Position numbers and translations under genes: made by a program. The notes beneath the pieces are model-generated. The model had not been told where the DNA came from. It worked only from the letters and a program-made list of their open reading frames with translations, and searched no databases. Below, one piece after another: positions 14,425 to 20,523 of a DNA stretch of 64,000 nucleotides (position 1 is the first letter of the stretch; each line of letters opens with the position of its first letter). Source of the DNA: Rhodospirillales bacterium (GTDB lineage Bacteria > Pseudomonadota > Alphaproteobacteria > ATCC43930 > CGMCC-115725); NCBI GenBank assembly GCA_027315365.1, contig DAHUYF010000205.1, positions 1 to 64,000 on the forward strand, given 5' to 3'.

Positions 14425-17400
14425 CTACCGCGTGATGCGGAAGATCGTCGCGGGGTTGACGGCGGGATCGAGAACGAGCCGCTGACGGGCGCCCCGCCAG
14501 CGATGCGCACTTCCGGTTAACAGCTCGAGCGTGGTGAAGGTTTCAACTTCCGCGATGCCCATCTCCGCCAGCGGGAGCTGGATCTCCGCCGCACGCACGG
14601 CGAAGGGGTCGAGATTGACGGCGACGAAGATGCGGTCGGCGCCGCCGGCGGCGGTTTTGCCATAGAACAGCACGGCATCGTCGTCGGCGGGGTAGAAGCG
14701 CAGCGTATCGAGACGGCGGAGCGCCGGGTGGTCGCGGCGGATGCGGTTGATGCGCGCGACGTCGTCCTTGATGTGGCCGGGCCGGTCCCAGTCCCAGACC
14801 TTGTACTCGTACTTCTCGGAGTCGAGATAGTCCTCGCTGTCCGGGACGGCGCGGGCCTCGCACAGCTCGAAACCGTTGTAGATGCCGTAGGACGGCGCCA
14901 GCGTCGCCGCCAGCACCAGCCGGGCGCGGAAGGCCGGCCGGCCGCCCTGTTGCAGATGCACCGGCAGGATGTCCGGCGTGTTGGCGAAGAAGTTCGGGCG
15001 GAAATACTCCTTCGCCGCTCCCTGCGCCAGCTCGGTGCCGTACTCCGTCAGCTCCTGCTTGCCGACCCGCCAGGTGAAGTAGGTGTAGGACTGGCTGAAG
15101 CCCGCCTTGGCGAGGGCGTGCATCAGCTTCGGCCGGGTGAAGGCCTCCGACAGGAAGATCGTCTCGGGATGGCGATCCTGGACCTCGCCGATCAGCCATT
15201 CCCAGAACGGCAGCGGCTTGGTGTGCGGATTGTCGACGCGGAAGATGGTCACGCCTTCGCCGATCCAGTGGAGCACGACGTCGCGCAACGCCCGCCACAG
15301 CGCCTCGCGGTCGGGGTTGTAGAAATCGACGTTGACGATGTCCTGGTACTTCTTCGGCGGATTCTCGGCGTATTTGATGGTGCCGTCGGGGCGGAAGACG
15401 AACCATTGCGGATGCTCCGACACCCAGGGATGGTCGGGCGCGCATTGGATGGCGAAGTCGAGTGCCACCTCCAGCTTCAGCGCGCGCGCGGCCGCGACGA
15501 AGCGGCGAAACCCCTCGATGCCGCCGAGATCGGGATGGACCGTGTCATGGCCGCCCTCGGCCGAGCCGATGGCGTAGGGACTGCCGGGGTCGCCGGGTGC
15601 GGCGACGACGCTGTTGTTGCGGCCCTTGCGATTGACCCGGCCGATGGGATGGATCGGCGGCAGGTAGACGATGTCGAAGCCCATGGCGCCGATCTCCGGC
15701 AGCCGGGCAATGGCGTCCTCGAAGGTGGCGCCGCGGCCGGGGACCCGTCCCTGGCTGCGCACGAACATCTCGTACCACGCGCCGCATTGCGCCAGCGGGC
15801 GGTCGACCATCACCTCGAGCTCGCGGCGGTAGCGCGTCGCCGCATCGCGCTCGGGCCAGCGCGCCATCGCCTGGCCCAGCAGCCGCGACAGCATGATCTC
15901 GGCGCAGCCGCCCGCATCGGCGCGCTCGAAGTCGCCGAGCAGGCGTTGCAGCAGCGCACGGTCGGCGCCGGCAGCGCGCGCCGCGGCGGCGGCGACCAGT
16001 TGGCGCCCCTCGAGCAGGTCGACGGCGAGGTTCTGCCCGGCCTGCCGCTTCTTCATGGCGTCGGCGCGCCAGGAAGCGAAGGCATCGGTCCACGCCTCCA
16101 CCGTGTAGCGATAGCGCGTGTTCTCGGCGAGCGGGACCTCTCCGACCCAGCGGTCGTTGTCGTCGAGCCGCATCGGCGCCGCGCACCATTGGGATGCGCC
16201 TTGCGGCCGATAGAGGATCACGGCGGCGAGCAGGTCGTGGCCGTCGCGCAGGATGTCGGCGCGGACCGCGAGGGTGTCGCCGACCACCCGCTTCACCGGG
16301 AAGCGCCCGCCATCGAGTTCGGGATGGACCTCTTCGATCAGGATGCGCCGGGCCGGAGACGCCGGCACGCTGCGGCGCGGCGGGCGCGGGTCGTCGACCG
16401 GCACGAGCCGCGCCGGGGCGCGCCGGCCGCGCAGCACCGTCACCGCCCGCGGCTCGACGGCGAGCCGCAGACCGGGCACGGGCCCCTCGCCGGCCGCCGT
16501 CAGCAGCAGCTCCTCGGTCTCCGCCGCCTCCAGCAGCAGGTCGGCATCGACCTCATTGGCGGTGGTGTCGTCGGTATTGATCAGGCTGAACGACCATTCC
16601 TCGCCGGTCAGGCTCTGCCGCGCCAGCACCACCAGCGGATCGCCCGGCGGCGTCAGCCGGCGCTGCGGCCCCTCCTGGTTGAGCGCCGGGGTCGCCCGCT
16701 TGACGGCATTGATCTCGGCAATGGCCGCCGACAGGTCGAAATACCGGGGCTCGGCATGCTCCGGCCGGGTCGCCACCACGTCGAGGCGGCGGCGCCAGCC
16801 GAACTCGTAGCCCATCGGCATCATCACGCCGGTGGAGAAGCAGGCGGCAAAGGCATAAGCTTGGCGGCAGCGCGCGGCGATCGCCCCGGGATCGAGACCG
16901 CCGCGCGCGAGCTCGGCCGCGAGCCGCTCGGTGTCATGGCTCTCGGGGAAGGCGATCGAGGGGGCGACGGCGCGGAAGAGCTCGTATTGCTCGAGCAGCC
17001 AGGGGCTGGCGAAATCCCACCACTTGCTGCTGTTGAAGAGGTAATCGAAGCCGGCACCCTCGAGTTGCCGTACCTCGGGAAGGCGGGCGCCCAGCGTCTC
17101 GGCGGCGAAGACGCAGTCGGGAGCGAGGCCGCGGGCGACGGCGATCAGCACCCGCCAGACCCGCGCCGGGACCTTATAGGCGGCGTCGCAGCGAAAGCCG
17201 CGGAAGCCCAGGCCGACATAGTACCGCACCAGCTCGGCGAAATAAGCGACCGTCTCCGCCTCGGCGCCGTCGCCGCGATACTCGATCTCGGCGAGATCGC
17301 CCCAGACGGTGACATCTGTCGCGTTGGCGGGATCGATCGCCGAGGGCGACCGCAGGCCGCCGCCCGGCTCGTGCGCGAACCAGTGCGGATGGCGCGCCGT

Positions 17401-17763
17401 CAGCTCGTTGTCGCGCGCCGTGTGGTTGATCACCAGATCCATCATCGCCGTCAGGCCATGATCGCCGCAGGCGGCGGTAAACCCGGCGAGCAGGGCCTCG
17501 TCGCTTTCCCGCGCCTTGCCGCGGAACAGCGCATGGAGGCGGCGGTAATCCTTCACCGCATAGAGACTGCCGGAAAGGCCCGGCTGATGGAACGGATTGA
17601 CGAAGACGCAGTTGAACCGCATCGCGGCGATGCGCGGCAGCTCCGCCCGCCACGCCGCGATGTCGCCGACGAGCAGGGGAAAGAGGTTGTAGATGCGCAG
17701 GCCCTGGGGCGGCGCACCGCCGGCCTCATCGGCACCGCGCGGCATCATCGCCGAGCCCGGCAC
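14425..17763 (-). CDS. glgE: alpha-1,4-glucan:maltose-1-phosphate maltosyltransferase with an extra N-terminal amylase-like domain
   Basis: Extends alpha-1,4-glucan with maltosyl units from maltose-1-phosphate. 1112 aa against about 660-700 for classical GlgE. The C-terminal two thirds are GlgE: an N-domain from about residue 485 (RRILIEEVHPELDGG), then a GH13_3 barrel with IFRVDNPHTKP (nucleophile Asp), FLSEAFTRPKLM (acid/base Glu) and FANTPDIL. Residues about 20-440 form a second GH13-like barrel with VNPFHQPGLSGSLY, GFRGFRCDAAYKV, FAAETLGARL and FPESHDTERLA, so a full candidate Asp-Glu-Asp triad is present. First gene of the operon, about 195 nt downstream of a GGAAC-N17-CGTT promoter. A second Met five residues in (MMPRG) is an alternative start. 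Confidence 0.94.
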   Translation of the reverse strand: MPGSAMMPRGADEAGGAPPQGLRIYNLFPLLVGDIAAWRAELPRIAAMRFNCVFVNPFHQPGLSGSLYAVKDYRRLHALFRGKARESDEALLAGFTAACGDHGLTAMMDLVINHTARDNELTARHPHWFAHEPGGGLRSPSAIDPANATDVTVWGDLAEIEYRGDGAEAETVAYFAELVRYYVGLGFRGFRCDAAYKVPARVWRVLIAVARGLAPDCVFAAETLGARLPEVRQLEGAGFDYLFNSSKWWDFASPWLLEQYELFRAVAPSIAFPESHDTERLAAELARGGLDPGAIAARCRQAYAFAACFSTGVMMPMGYEFGWRRRLDVVATRPEHAEPRYFDLSAAIAEINAVKRATPALNQEGPQRRLTPPGDPLVVLARQSLTGEEWSFSLINTDDTTANEVDADLLLEAAETEELLLTAAGEGPVPGLRLAVEPRAVTVLRGRRAPARLVPVDDPRPPRRSVPASPARRILIEEVHPELDGGRFPVKRVVGDTLAVRADILRDGHDLLAAVILYRPQGASQWCAAPMRLDDNDRWVGEVPLAENTRYRYTVEAWTDAFASWRADAMKKRQAGQNLAVDLLEGRQLVAAAAARAAGADRALLQRLLGDFERADAGGCAEIMLSRLLGQAMARWPERDAATRYRRELEVMVDRPLAQCGAWYEMFVRSQGRVPGRGATFEDAIARLPEIGAMGFDIVYLPPIHPIGRVNRKGRNNSVVAAPGDPGSPYAIGSAEGGHDTVHPDLGGIEGFRRFVAAARALKLEVALDFAIQCAPDHPWVSEHPQWFVFRPDGTIKYAENPPKKYQDIVNVDFYNPDREALWRALRDVVLHWIGEGVTIFRVDNPHTKPLPFWEWLIGEVQDRHPETIFLSEAFTRPKLMHALAKAGFSQSYTYFTWRVGKQELTEYGTELAQGAAKEYFRPNFFANTPDILPVHLQQGGRPAFRARLVLAATLAPSYGIYNGFELCEARAVPDSEDYLDSEKYEYKVWDWDRPGHIKDDVARINRIRRDHPALRRLDTLRFYPADDDAVLFYGKTAAGGADRIFVAVNLDPFAVRAAEIQLPLAEMGIAEVETFTTLELLTGSAHRWRGARQRLVLDPAVNPATIFRITR

Positions 17764-17959: not shown

Positions 17960-17985
17960 AACGGTGCTTCTCGCAAGGTGGTTCC
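17960..17985 (-). promoter_or_regulatory. EcfG-type stress promoter for the glgE operon
   Basis: On the minus strand GGAAC (17985-17981) and CGTT (17963-17960) are separated by exactly 17 bp, matching the GGAAC-N16/17-CGTT consensus of the alphaproteobacterial general stress sigma factor. It begins right after the DUF2188 stop codon and points at glgE. The predicted start near 17953 gives a leader of about 190 nt (17764-17953) in which I see no gene, only a short homopolymer run. Binding by EcfG or by the local ECF factor is inference. Confidence 0.75.
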
Positions 17986-17986
17986 G

Positions 17987-18280
17987 TCAGCGGCGGGACG
18001 GCGGCTCGCCCTTGGGCGGCGGCCGGACCTCGCCACCGACCGCGCGCTCGAGGTCGAGCGCCACATCGGCGCCGAACAGCCTTTCGTCGGCGATGGTGCC
18101 GGCGGGATCCTCGACCACCAGCTTGCTCGGCTCGTCCGCCGCGGCGAGGTCCCAGGCCTGGCGCATGGCCGCCTCGCGCGTCGGCCAGCGGCCGCGCGCC
18201 GCCACCTCGCCCTCCTTCTGCACGCTCCACCCCTGGCTCGCCAACGGGCGCACGCGATAGACATGCCGTCCCAGCACCAT
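17987..18280 (-). CDS. DUF2188 domain protein
   Basis: A 97-aa protein of unknown function with the DUF2188 pattern: an N-terminal HVYRVRPLASQGWSVQKEG strand pair, then TREAAMRQAWDLAAADEPSKL (helix) and a VVEDPAGTIADERLFGAD strand. The C-terminal 20 residues are charged and proline-rich. A strong Shine-Dalgarno (AAAGGAGGT) ends two bases before the ATG, tighter than ideal spacing. Its own GGAAC-N17-CGTT promoter lies 28-53 bp upstream, so it is likely stress-induced. Transcription could continue into the glgE operon. DUF2188 proteins are small and widespread in bacteria with no established biochemical role known to me. Confidence 0.85.
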   Translation of the reverse strand: MVLGRHVYRVRPLASQGWSVQKEGEVAARGRWPTREAAMRQAWDLAAADEPSKLVVEDPAGTIADERLFGADVALDLERAVGGEVRPPPKGEPPSRR

Positions 18281-18307
18281 CGACCTCCTTTGTCCTGCCT
18301 CTCCGGC

Positions 18308-18333
18308 AACGCCGCCGCACTCCGGGCCGTTCC
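18308..18333 (-). promoter_or_regulatory. EcfG-type stress promoter for the DUF2188 gene
   Basis: The minus strand carries GGAAC (18333-18329), 17 bp, CGTT (18311-18308). The -10 element is 27 bp before the DUF2188 ATG, leaving a short leader of about 20 nt that contains the Shine-Dalgarno. It is back to back with the plus-strand element at 18340-18364. Confidence 0.8.
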
Positions 18334-18339
18334 GCCGAG

Positions 18340-18364
18340 GGAACTCGGGGGTCTGCCGGGCGTT
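18340..18364 (+). promoter_or_regulatory. EcfG-type stress promoter for the anti-sigma-like gene
   Basis: The plus strand carries GGAAC (18340-18344), 16 bp, CGTT (18361-18364), again a complete match to the EcfG consensus. It diverges from the DUF2188 promoter with only 6 bp between the two -35 elements. The next plus-strand gene starts 103-118 bp after the -10. Start sites of both transcripts remain inferred. Confidence 0.7.
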
Positions 18365-18481
18365 CTGGTGAAGCTCCCCGTTCGGACCTTGCGGATCGCC
18401 CGCCCCTGTCGTCGCACATGAGGGCGCCGCCGGTTGCGCCATGTCACGGTTAGCATCGAGGACGGATTGACCTACCCGAGG

Positions 18482-18721
18482 ATGGACATCACGGAAGACG
18501 ACCTTCATGCCTATGTCGACGGTACGCTCGAGCGACCGCGCCGGCTGGCGGTGGCGCTCTATCTTGTCGACCATCCCGGCGATGCGGCGCGGGTCGAGGC
18601 CTTCCGCGCCCAGAAGGAGGCGGTCCACCTCCTTTTCGGCAACGTCCTCGACGAGCCCCTGCCCCAAAGGCTGATGCGGGCGCTGCGGCCCGGCGTACCG
18701 CCGGTCGCCCGGCGGAGGTGA
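18482..18721 (+). CDS. small anti-sigma-factor-like protein
   Basis: 79 aa. The N-terminal half, MDITEDDLHAYVDGTLERP, and the segment VDHPGDAARVEAFRAQKEAVHLLF match the cytoplasmic N-terminal domain of alphaproteobacterial membrane anti-sigma factors, followed by VLDEPLPQRLMRAL. Full-length relatives continue into a transmembrane helix and periplasmic domain (about 250 aa); this one stops after the sigma-binding part and has no membrane segment. The EPLPQRL motif also recalls NepR, the anti-EcfG protein, but overall similarity is to the anti-sigma family. ATG at 18482 has a poor ribosome site; a TTG at 18467 preceded by GAGG is an alternative start. Convergent with the ECF sigma gene. Confidence 0.75.
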   Translation: MDITEDDLHAYVDGTLERPRRLAVALYLVDHPGDAARVEAFRAQKEAVHLLFGNVLDEPLPQRLMRALRPGVPPVARRR

Positions 18722-18739
18722 GCGCCGCACGCAAAGAGA

Positions 18740-18766
18740 GGCCGGGCGCGAATCCCGCACCCGGCC
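18740..18766 (-). terminator. hairpin after the ECF sigma gene / candidate small RNA
   Basis: Arms 18740-18750 and 18756-18766 form an 11-bp stem with a 5-base loop. Read on the minus strand the one non-Watson-Crick pair is a G-U wobble, while on the plus strand it is a C-A mismatch. The minus strand continues into TCTCTTTG. This suggests a leftward, weakly intrinsic terminator between the convergent sigma and anti-sigma-like genes. Confidence 0.5.
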
Positions 18767-18894
18767 AGTCCGCGGGTGGCAAACCCATCGACAGGGAGAC
18801 CTTGCCAAGCCGGGCGAGGGAAGATCGGGGAAACGCGGCACCCGGCGGGCCGCGGTCCGGTGGCGCGCCGGGGAGCTGCGGCCACCACGTTTCC

Positions 18895-18919
18895 AACGCG
18901 CCGTGCCGCCCGGGGTTCC
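18895..18919 (-). promoter_or_regulatory. fourth EcfG-type element, antisense orientation
   Basis: The minus strand carries GGAAC (18919-18915), 16 bp, CGTT (18898-18895), just downstream of the ECF sigma stop. It points left toward the hairpin at 18740-18766 and the antisense strand of the anti-sigma-like gene. No credible minus-strand gene follows; the open frames there are Arg/Pro/Ala-rich shadows. A transcript of about 150 nt from near 18888 would be a small or antisense RNA. The match is exact but the function is inferred, and chance is possible for this one. Confidence 0.45.
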
Positions 18920-18930
18920 TACCCCTCCGG

Positions 18931-19560
18931 TCACGCGTCGCGGCGCGGCACAAGCGCGCCGCCGGCAGTCGCCGATGGACGGGCGCAGCGCAGGGCGCCG
19001 TCGACGGCGATCTCGGACTGGCCCCGGGCCGGCGCCAGCCGGCGCGGCGCCGTGGGGCGACTCGCTTCCGGCCCCTCGGGACCCATGCCCATCAGGTGCC
19101 GCAGCATCTCGCGGCCGCGCGACAGACGCGAGCGGATGGTGCCAACCGGCACGTCGAGCACCGCAGCCACCTCCTCGTAGCGCATGCCTTCCAGCCCCAC
19201 CAGCAGCAGCACCGAGCGCTGCTCCTCCGGCAGCTTGGCGATGGCGCGCTCGAGGTCGCGCAGCTCGAGCCGCTTGCCTTGGTTGGGCGAGGTCGTCAGC
19301 AGCGGCTCGCTGTCGGAGAGGCCGACGGCCGAACCCTCGCGCACCGCGCGACGAACGTGGTTGACGTACTGATTGTGCAGGATCGTGAACAGCCAGGCGC
19401 GGAGATCGGTGCCCTTCTGCCACAGATGCACCTTGCTCAACGCCCGGGTCAGGCAGTCCTGCACCAGATCGTCGGCGGCAGTGACGTCACGGGTCAAGGC
19501 GCGCGCATACCGACGCAAGCGCGGGATCTCTTCCTCGATCTTTTTGCAAATGTCGGACAT
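18931..19560 (-). CDS. ECF-family RNA polymerase sigma factor
   Basis: 209 aa. Region 2 (about residues 12-75) has the typical ADDLVQDCLTRAL and DLRAWLFTILHNQYVNHVRR segments; region 4 (about 110-160) has KLPEEQRSVLLLVGLEGMRY and VPVGTIRSRLSRGREMLR for -35 recognition. The last 45 residues are Ala/Pro/Arg-rich and look disordered. Region 4 lacks the EICGCAVGT signature of EcfG itself, so I place it in another ECF group. Shine-Dalgarno GGGAG lies 5 nt before the ATG. Its likely partner is the small anti-sigma-like protein encoded convergently. It shares a 240-bp divergent intergenic region with the response regulator. No GGAAC-CGTT element is seen upstream of its own start. Confidence 0.92.
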   Translation of the reverse strand: MSDICKKIEEEIPRLRRYARALTRDVTAADDLVQDCLTRALSKVHLWQKGTDLRAWLFTILHNQYVNHVRRAVREGSAVGLSDSEPLLTTSPNQGKRLELRDLERAIAKLPEEQRSVLLLVGLEGMRYEEVAAVLDVPVGTIRSRLSRGREMLRHLMGMGPEGPEASRPTAPRRLAPARGQSEIAVDGALRCARPSATAGGALVPRRDA

Positions 19561-19677: not shown

Positions 19678-19707
19678 TGTAAGAAATTGTAACGGCATGT
19701 AATCGAT
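19678..19707. promoter_or_regulatory. tandem TGTAA operator between the sigma and response regulator genes
   Basis: Three direct TGTAA half-sites start at 19678, 19688 and 19698, exactly 10 bp apart, with a fourth (TGTAATCGG) at 19645. Tandem half-sites one helical turn apart are the binding pattern of OmpR/PhoB-type regulators, and such a regulator is encoded 94 bp away. The first site also overlaps a 6+3+6 inverted repeat (19673-19687). It lies between two divergent genes and could control either or both. Confidence 0.5.
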
Positions 19708-19800
19708 CTCCGCCGCACGCATCACGCGAACAGAGTATTGTCCTCCCTCACCTGAGCGATATTGCATCACCGCCCCAGATGCGCCACAGTGACGCCAGCC

Positions 19801-20523
19801 ATGAAAGCGACCGACCATATCCTGGTGGTGGACGACCAGAAGGAGATATGCGAAGTCGTCCAGCAGTATTTGTCGAGCGAAGGCTACCGGGTCAGCGTCG
19901 CCAATGACGGCGGCGGGATGCGCCGCGTCATGGCGCAGGGCGCGGTCGACCTCGTCATCCTCGATCTGATGCTGCCGGGCGAGGACGGGCTCACCCTGGC
20001 GCGGCAGCTGCGCGAGGAATCCACCGTCGGGATCATCATCCTGACCGGGCGGGGCGAGACCGTCGACCGCATCATCGGGCTCGAGATGGGCGCCGACGAC
20101 TACCTGCCGAAACCGTTCCATCTGCGCGAGCTGCTGGCACGGGTCAAGAGCGTGCTGCGCCGCGCCTCGAGCCGGGCCCAGAAGGAGCCGCCTTCCAGCG
20201 CCCGCGCCCGCGCCCGTTTCGCCGGCTGGCATCTCGATCTGGCGACGCGCGAGCTGGTCTCGCCCGAGGGCGGCGAGGTGCGGCTGACCACCGGCGAGTT
20301 CGACCTGCTTGCCGCCTTCGTCAACAACGCCAACCAAGTGCTGAGCCGCGACCGACTGCTCGATCTCGCGCGCAATCGCGAGGCCGGCCCCTTTGACCGT
20401 ACCATCGACGTCCAGGTCGGCCGCCTCAGGCGCAAGCTCGAGCCCGATCCGGCCAAGCCCACCATCATCAAGACGGTGCGCGGCACCGGCTACATCTTCA
20501 CGCCCACGGTCGAAGTCGTCTGA
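19801..20523 (+). CDS. OmpR/PhoB-family response regulator without adjacent kinase
   Basis: 240 aa two-domain transcription factor. The receiver (residues 5-118) has the acidic pair DD at 11-12, phospho-acceptor Asp55 in LVILDLMLPGEDG, Thr82 in IILTGRG and Lys104 in YLPKPFHL. The C-terminal winged helix (about 140-238) has LTTGEFDLLAAF and the recognition region RTIDVQVGRLRRKLE followed by TVRGTGYIF. The ATG is the only in-frame choice that begins with the receiver; no clear Shine-Dalgarno precedes it. No histidine kinase is nearby, so it is an orphan here. Possible autoregulation through the TGTAA repeats is inference. A GC-rich hairpin without a U-tract (20524-20544) follows the gene. Confidence 0.93.
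   Translation: MKATDHILVVDDQKEICEVVQQYLSSEGYRVSVANDGGGMRRVMAQGAVDLVILDLMLPGEDGLTLARQLREESTVGIIILTGRGETVDRIIGLEMGADDYLPKPFHLRELLARVKSVLRRASSRAQKEPPSSARARARFAGWHLDLATRELVSPEGGEVRLTTGEFDLLAAFVNNANQVLSRDRLLDLARNREAGPFDRTIDVQVGRLRRKLEPDPAKPTIIKTVRGTGYIFTPTVEVV

What the first reader, a model, noticed from the sequence alone, without database searches (positions are those of the whole stretch)
17960..18919. Four exact GGAAC-N16/17-CGTT stress promoters packed in 1 kb
Elements at 17960-17985 (minus), 18308-18333 (minus), 18340-18364 (plus) and 18895-18919 (minus) all match the EcfG consensus without mismatch. At this base composition I would expect fewer than one such match by chance in the whole 64 kb on both strands, and by eye I saw no other complete match elsewhere. 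Three sit directly upstream of genes in the right orientation. This points to a stress-sigma control hub for glucan/trehalose storage, DUF2188 and an anti-sigma-like protein.
Basis: partly seen in the sequence, partly recalled or inferred. Interest (0 to 1): 0.75.

Follow-up and report, generated by a model that had tools for sequence, protein, structure and literature searches.

The report
Stress-promoter hub with unreported small RNA
Four stress-type promoters really are packed into one kilobase of this uncultured bacterium's genome, and one of them precedes a conserved, apparently undescribed small RNA, in a lineage whose genomes seem to lack the usual master switch of the stress response while keeping its promoter code.

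Summary
In detail: four exact GGAAC-N16/17-CGTT sites in 64 kb, 0.41 expected. The genome has 71, elsewhere at most two per kilobase. Genome-wide, 58 of 70 scored sites lie in noncoding-like DNA against 10 of 30 reversed-pattern sites (17 of 30 at a looser threshold), some before stress genes such as SOD, Mn-catalase and Ku. (1) The "orphan" site 18895-18919 precedes a predicted ~157-nt small RNA with an intrinsic terminator. It occurs in 18 of 39 family genomes, with an EcfG-like promoter in 18 of 18 and compensatory changes; Rfam gave no credible match. (2) The neighbouring sigma lies outside the NepR/PhyR-linked EcfG clade, and no EcfG or PhyR was found in this genome. A conserved OmpR-type regulator lies beside it, with a GTTACA-N5-TTAC block before the sigma gene. 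Best model: regulator -> ECF sigma -> EcfG-type promoters, including the small RNA. Sigma identity, regulator binding and RNA function are inferred.

The parts
18895..18919 (-). EcfG-type promoter of the small RNA
   Evidence: Exact match. GGAAC-N16/17-[ACT]GTT precedes the RNA core in 18 of 18 genomes that carry it (exact CGTT in 9); reversed pattern 0, opposite strand 0
18733..18889 (-). Predicted small RNA, about 157 nt (5' end placed 6 nt after the -10 element; not mapped)
   Evidence: Covariance model match 18733-18852, 80.8 bits; promoter and length estimate; covariation
18772..18806 (-). Conserved core of the small RNA: GGCAAR stem, GUCUCCCUGU loop, overlapping alternative helix GGGU/ACCC
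   Evidence: Alignment of 18 sequences; pair counts
18740..18766 (-). Intrinsic terminator of the small RNA
   Evidence: 12-pair hairpin plus T-rich tail; 8 of 12 terminator pairs show changes on both sides across 18 sequences
18931..19560 (-). ECF sigma factor, candidate reader of the promoters
   Evidence: PhyR_sigma2 and Sigma70_r4_2; outside the NepR/PhyR-linked EcfG clade
19679..19693 (-). GTTACA-N5-TTAC block upstream of the sigma gene, possible response-regulator site
   Evidence: 17 of 19 regulator-sigma intergenic regions; the spacing-N5 form occurs nowhere else in the 18 relative loci or the window
19762..20523 (+). OmpR-type response regulator, divergent from the sigma gene (likely start 19801)
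   Evidence: Response_reg and Trans_reg_C; conserved neighbour
18340..18364 (+). EcfG-type promoter of the anti-sigma-like ORF
   Evidence: Exact match; exact motif before the homologous ORF in L155 and L158
18482..18721 (+). 79-aa anti-sigma-like ORF, convergent with the sigma gene
   Evidence: tblastn homologues beside the sigma orthologue in G014 and G004; no Pfam match above cut-off
18308..18333 (-). EcfG-type promoter of DUF2188
   Evidence: Exact match; a motif with [ACT]GTT precedes DUF2188 in 8 of 10 relatives that have it next to the small RNA, exact CGTT in 5
17987..18280 (-). DUF2188 protein
   Evidence: Pfam DUF2188, 45.2 bits
17960..17985 (-). EcfG-type promoter of glgE-treS, leader of about 190 nt
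   Evidence: Exact match; a motif precedes glgE in 2 of 3 relatives with the same gene order
14425..17763 (-). GlgE maltosyltransferase
   Evidence: GlgE_dom_N_S 185 bits, GLGE_C 64.6 bits
11048..14395 (-). Trehalose synthase fused to maltokinase (TreS-Mak)
   Evidence: TIGR02456 and TIGR02457 over cut-off

Best explanation
The kilobase is the core of a conserved general-stress island. An OmpR-type response regulator probably switches on the neighbouring ECF sigma gene through the GTTACA-N5-TTAC block (inferred). That sigma, perhaps with its paralogue on contig C39, then probably transcribes promoters of the EcfG type, GGAAC-N16/17-CGTT (inferred). Four of these lie here: before glgE-treS, DUF2188, a 79-aa anti-sigma-like protein that may feed back on the sigma, and a ~157-nt small RNA. 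Promoter, RNA structure, terminator and their conservation are shown by comparison. That the RNA is made under stress and acts by pairing its invariant GUCUCCCUGU loop with mRNAs is inferred. The 58 noncoding-like sites in the genome (the four here included) suggest a stress regulon without a detectable EcfG or PhyR.
For: Four sites against 0.41 expected. 58 of 70 scored genome sites are noncoding-like against 10 of 30 controls at threshold 0.1 (Fisher p 3e-6). Downstream genes include SOD, Mn-catalase, two Ku, DJ-1, encapsulin-ferritin-like, DUF1328, DUF3175, DUF4142, entericidin. The small RNA is found in 18 of 39 family genomes, with an upstream promoter in 18 of 18, 0 in controls. Helices: 11 of 26 pairs have changes on both sides, 0 of 500 shuffles reach this. 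Order regulator / sigma / promoter / small RNA / promoter / DUF2188 is conserved, continuing to GlgE and TreS in three relatives. The regulator block is in 17 of 19 intergenic regions. The anti-sigma gene and its motif are conserved in two other genomes.
Against: No expression data. In two genomes (G013, G062) the small RNA and its motif (-10 TGTT) persist although no sigma gene lies beside it, so that sigma is not the only possible reader. The own genome holds other ECF sigmas. No GGAAC-type motif was found before the sigma gene in the window or the loci, so the sigma does not appear autoregulated. At a looser coding threshold (0.25) the contrast weakens to 58 of 70 against 17 of 30 (p 0.011). 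The genes behind the motif include many not known for stress: RsmB, PEPCK, an Nramp transporter, a polysaccharide-export protein. Whole-genome counts of the exact motif exceed the reversed pattern in only 4 of the 16 small-RNA genomes included (G000, G005, G007, and G016 barely, 100 to 99). A perfect complement of the RNA loop occurs only once elsewhere in the genome, so targets are unknown. The single-sequence fold of the window RNA is only modestly stable (z -1.8).
Confidence: 0.68

Rival explanations
1. An undetected or highly diverged canonical EcfG under PhyR/NepR control reads the sites; the neighbouring sigma is a bystander.
For: The motif equals the published EcfG1 motif of R. etli (PMC3892343 passages). 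Short NepR-like proteins occur in own genome (L269, not reaching E 0.001) and in relatives with the small RNA, four genomes over the NepR cut-off. A NepR-linked sigma in G012 scores only 114 bits against the EcfG query, so divergent EcfGs can be missed by bit score alone. The small RNA persists without the neighbouring sigma in two genomes. The placing of one own ECF (contig C124) in the tree is unsure.
Against: Own genome, 99.25% complete, has no PhyR and no EcfG match above 115 bits, against 154-336 bits in the ten genomes that have EcfG. None of its four best ECFs falls inside the EcfG clade.
Confidence: 0.2
2. The conserved RNA is a cis-acting leader or attenuator of DUF2188, not a free small RNA.
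For: In 10 relatives DUF2188 follows on the same strand; the core can form two overlapping helices.
Against: A motif lies between the RNA and DUF2188 in 8 of these 10. In seven small-RNA genomes no DUF2188 was found next to it; downstream lie a Macro-domain protein, MreB or a cobalamin-independent methionine-synthase-like gene. In the window an ORF on the opposite strand lies between.
Confidence: 0.1
3. The conserved stretch is a short protein-coding gene or the 3' end of the sigma transcript.
For: An ORF can be read through it in some genomes.
Against: The codon at the start of the core reads ATG, TTG or TCG in different genomes and a 1-nt length difference lies inside the core. The change pattern follows base pairing. 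It has its own promoter and survives loss of the adjacent sigma gene.
Confidence: 0.05
4. The four sites are chance or mere composition.
For: The motif occurs 71 times in the genome, 43 for the reversed pattern.
Against: Shuffles, noncoding placement, conservation at orthologous positions.
Confidence: 0.02

Closest known systems
Alphaproteobacterial general stress response (PhyR-NepR-EcfG)
   Same: Promoter motif GGAAC-N16-CGTT (PMC3892343 passages); regulon with oxidative-stress, DNA-repair and envelope genes (regulon make-up recalled)
   Different: No EcfG and no PhyR found in this genome; NepR only as short divergent relatives; sigma of another ECF clade
GsrN, sigma-T-dependent small RNA of Caulobacter (PMC5869019; abstract, section 7 and passages read)
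   Same: Small RNA of similar size from an EcfG-type promoter, intrinsic terminator, C-rich loop, often near stress-sigma genes
   Different: Its BLASTn homologues were limited to Caulobacteraceae; candidates in several Rhizobiales rest on position, promoter and transcript data. No sequence comparison with GsrN was made here; its neighbours are not DUF2188 or GlgE as far as the passages tell
ReC64, EcfG1-dependent ncRNA of Rhizobium etli (PMC3892343; passages)
   Same: ncRNA with an EcfG motif beside the stress-sigma locus, start mapped by 5' RACE
   Different: Lies by phyR/ecfG1, which were not found here; sequence not compared
ECF26 sigma factors with anti-sigma partners (PMC6180224; passages)
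   Same: Alphaproteobacterial ECF sigma with adjacent anti-sigma; S. meliloti RpoE6 motif is said to resemble that of ECF15
   Different: The S. meliloti ECF26 anti-sigmas have a transmembrane and periplasmic part; here the ORF is 79 aa. Group assignment was not tested

Membership tests
EcfG-type promoter | GGAAC-N16/17-CGTT | tested here: met
   Four exact sites
EcfG-type promoter | Located in noncoding DNA before genes genome-wide | tested here: met
   58 of 70 against 10 of 30 controls (17 of 30 at the looser threshold); gene list
EcfG-type promoter | Transcript start a few nt after the -10 element | not testable with these tools
   No RNA data
Canonical PhyR-NepR-EcfG response | EcfG sigma | tested here: not met
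   Best own match 114 bits, to an ECF outside the EcfG clade; EcfG-bearing relatives 154-336 bits; tree
Canonical PhyR-NepR-EcfG response | PhyR with sigma-like and receiver domains | tested here: not met
   PF22029: four hits in own genome, all ECF sigma frames; no PhyR at E 1e-12; the same family does detect a true PhyR at 78 bits
Canonical PhyR-NepR-EcfG response | NepR anti-sigma | tested here: inconclusive
   The only match is below cut-off and inside a 270-aa anti-sigma-like ORF; a separate 76-aa NepR-like ORF with the motif upstream exists
GsrN-type stress small RNA | Own EcfG-type promoter | tested here: met
   18 of 18 with [ACT]GTT, 9 of 18 with CGTT
GsrN-type stress small RNA | Intrinsic terminator and C-rich loop | tested here: met
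GsrN-type stress small RNA | Sequence homology with GsrN | not tested
   GsrN sequence not fetched; model R1 found no credible match outside the family in 387 class genomes, strict filters
GsrN-type stress small RNA | Post-transcriptional regulation of stress mRNAs | not testable with these tools
   No targets found; perfect loop complement once elsewhere in the genome

The most novel reading that the evidence does not exclude
In this lineage of uncultured Alphaproteobacteria the general stress response has been rewired: EcfG and PhyR are gone, the EcfG promoter code and regulon remain, and a different ECF sigma, switched on by an OmpR-type regulator and checked by short NepR-like or anti-sigma proteins, now reads it. 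A new small-RNA family, transcribed from that code next to the sigma, is part of the new core.
Probability: 0.5. Interest if true: 0.75.

Novelty: new variant of a known kind. Interest (0 to 1): 0.6.

Why it matters
The PhyR-NepR-EcfG switch is treated as the core of stress control in Alphaproteobacteria. A clade that keeps the promoter code and regulon while lacking EcfG and PhyR would show how a master regulator can be replaced without rewriting its targets, and the small RNA gives a handle on the post-transcriptional arm outside the groups in which GsrN-like RNAs have been proposed. Both predictions can be tested directly.

Tried and rejected
NepR hit in own genome: first taken as the EcfG locus, then rejected because it lies inside a 270-aa anti-sigma-like ORF and below cut-off. 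Whole-genome motif counts across 61 genomes as a test of which sigma reads the motif: rejected, since the reversed pattern depends on composition. Small-RNA model hits in G002 (28 bits) and G387 (26 bits): rejected, no core. In the named-genome pattern scan, 6 of 23 hits (L086, L088, L092, L099, L103, L105) were dropped as chance: best model score 17.4 bits or none, against 93 or more for the other 17. Rfam: two chance hits below gathering score, none at gathering score in six loci. Target search with the loop complement: no enrichment in G000. The -10 class [ACT]GTT used was chosen after seeing the sequences; the exact CGTT count is 9 of 18. The shuffles keep base composition only. The structure counted was written from one of the 18 sequences (G021), which favours it over the slid versions. 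The coding score was trained on four window genes; one of 71 sites was too near an edge to score, and only 30 of 43 control sites were fetched. The ORF list is crude: it counts one ORF twice (two motifs, L004), gives the small-RNA site a weak spurious frame and includes some sites inside coding DNA. The 11 EcfG rows of the tree hold one gene twice (L122 and L176, G054), and several rows have long branches. Sigma-70-type promoters in the divergent region: none matched the regular expression used; a TGACAT...TA-A-T likeness is by eye.

Errors corrected: the anti-sigma query was out of frame and was redone; one search used wrong positions and was redone; one row of alignment A3 had wrong coordinates and was replaced in A4. 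The confidence in the best explanation went from 0.70 to 0.68, and that of the coding/3'-end rival from 0.04 to 0.05, because the looser-threshold control is weaker than first stated and the coding test is indirect.

Full report
CHECK. The genome holding the window (G000, 4.97 Mb, 215 contigs) has 71 matches, 43 for the pattern read backwards, and by the listed positions nowhere else more than two per kilobase.

GENOME-WIDE MEANING. With a codon score trained on four window genes, 58 of 70 scored motif sites lie in noncoding-like DNA, against 10 of 30 reversed-pattern sites at threshold 0.1 and 17 of 30 at 0.25 (Fisher p 3e-6 and 0.011). For 53 of the 71 sites an ORF with a coding-like score starts within 400 nt downstream (crude, see Tried and rejected). 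Thirty of these proteins were scanned; 5 had no match at the thresholds used. Pfam names among the others SOD, Mn-catalase, two Ku, DJ-1, encapsulin-ferritin-like, GH15, GreA-like, DUF1328, DUF3175, DUF3185, DUF4142, entericidin and OmpA, but also RsmB, PEPCK, Nramp, PadR and polysaccharide export. The first group resembles a general stress regulon (from general knowledge); the second does not speak either way.

THE FOURTH SITE. Site 18895-18919 points away from any convincing gene. Downstream a terminator hairpin lies at 18766-18740. The stretch between is conserved in relatives. A covariance model (R1) finds it in 18 of 39 genomes of the family (a 19th hit, G002 at 28 bits, lacks the core and is dropped) and in no other of 387 class genomes except one 26-bit hit without the core (strict filters). 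A pattern scan of named species genomes gave 23 stretches, 17 of them real by model score (93 bits or more), all titled MAGs: Alphaproteobacteria, Proteobacteria, Rhodospirillales and one 'Rhizobium sp.'. All 18 distinct sequences have GGAAC-N16/17-[ACT]GTT within 140 nt upstream of the core, 9 with exact CGTT; reversed pattern 0, opposite strand 0, composition shuffles mean 0.016. Predicted lengths are 116-162 nt. On the 18-row alignment three helices give 94.0% paired cells, 11 of 26 pairs with changes on both sides, and no shuffle of 500 reaches any of the five measures; slid versions give at most 44%. An overlapping helix GCGGGU/ACCCGC is paired in 99.1% of cells but shows no change on both sides, so it is compatible, not proven. 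The loop GUCUCCCUGU is invariant in the 18. Rfam has no match at gathering score in six loci, and only two implausible ones up to E 1 in the window stretch.

INDEPENDENCE. The RNA lies beside the sigma in 16 of 18 genomes (in one a fragment at a contig end); in G013 and G062 no sigma lies there but RNA and promoter remain. DUF2188 follows in 10 relatives, 8 with a motif of their own (5 exact CGTT); in seven others no DUF2188 was found there, and a Macro-domain protein (L151, L163), MreB (L148, L154, L161) or a methionine-synthase-like gene (L144) lies downstream (L162 not scanned). It is therefore not a leader of one gene. The varying codon at the core's start and a 1-nt length difference within it argue against coding.

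THE SIGMA. The neighbouring ECF sigma is not inside the clade of NepR/PhyR-linked EcfGs (11 rows, 10 genes; support 99/92; several long branches, flagged by the tool). An EcfG query gives 154-336 bits in 10 of 39 family genomes, none of which carries the small RNA; none of the 18 small-RNA genomes exceeds 120 bits (G003, without the RNA, is intermediate at 136). Genomes of one genus are not independent, so this is a clade pattern. Of the 16 small-RNA genomes included none has a full-length PhyR; three (G016, G026, G033) match in the receiver part only. Own genome has four PhyR_sigma2 hits, all ECF sigma frames (sequences), while a true PhyR from relative G004 scores 78 bits with that family. 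NepR is not simply absent: short NepR-like proteins were seen in 9 of the small-RNA genomes (10 ORFs), four genomes over the cut-off. Own contig C179 carries one of 76 aa with an exact motif ending 52 nt before its start. Of the 10 ORFs only this one and that of G033 (TGTT) have a motif within 350 nt upstream.

ITS CONTROL. Between the sigma and the divergent OmpR-type regulator, GTTACA-N5-TTAC occurs in 17 of 19 intergenic regions. In the 18 relative loci all 16 occurrences of this spacing lie there, and the window has no other; one N3-spaced occurrence lies elsewhere (L150:1838). The other two regions show TTTACA in place of GTTACA. Where the sigma is missing, the block is degraded (L162, L163). 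This suggests the regulator drives the sigma; binding is not shown.

ANTI-SIGMA. The 79-aa ORF behind site 18340-18364 has homologues convergent with the sigma orthologue in G014 and G004, each with an exact motif upstream, which supports that promoter. tblastn at E 0.01 found none beside the small RNA in the other loci.

KNOWN OR NEW. The promoter type is known (PMC3892343 and PMC8103513, passages). Small RNAs under EcfG are known: GsrN (PMC5869019: abstract, section 7 and passages) and ReC64 (PMC3892343, passages). The role of the PhyR cascade varies among Alphaproteobacteria: Rhodobacter sphaeroides keeps it but with a minor role (PMC5830050, passages). Searches listed no title or abstract start on this RNA or on this clade's stress control in the open library; subscription papers are not covered. 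The novelty lies in the new RNA family and in the pairing of an EcfG-type regulon with a non-EcfG sigma.

Noticed in passing
L269:6911-7141 (G000 contig C179): 76-aa NepR-like ORF with an exact EcfG-type motif upstream, standing alone between unrelated genes; similar short proteins occur in several relatives, mostly without the motif
   Followed up: partly
L270 / G000 contig C31:8224-15629: Four exact motifs around a TPP-dependent enzyme and two Ku genes, a second stress gene cluster
   Followed up: partly
window 18308-18364: Two divergent EcfG-type promoters with -35 boxes 6 bp apart, which might not be occupied at the same time
   Followed up: no
L169:3716-7382 (G004): NepR, PhyR and a sensor kinase (HWE type by eye) near glgE-treS, with divergent near-consensus motifs (TGTT, AGTT) before NepR and PhyR; the EcfG of this genome lies about 20 kb away on the same contig
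   Followed up: partly
L151, L163: A Macro-domain protein follows the small RNA where no DUF2188 was found; MreB does so in L148, L154 and L161
   Followed up: partly
G000 contig C39:17941-18453: Paralogue of the window sigma, 70% identical, possible second reader of the promoters
   Followed up: partly
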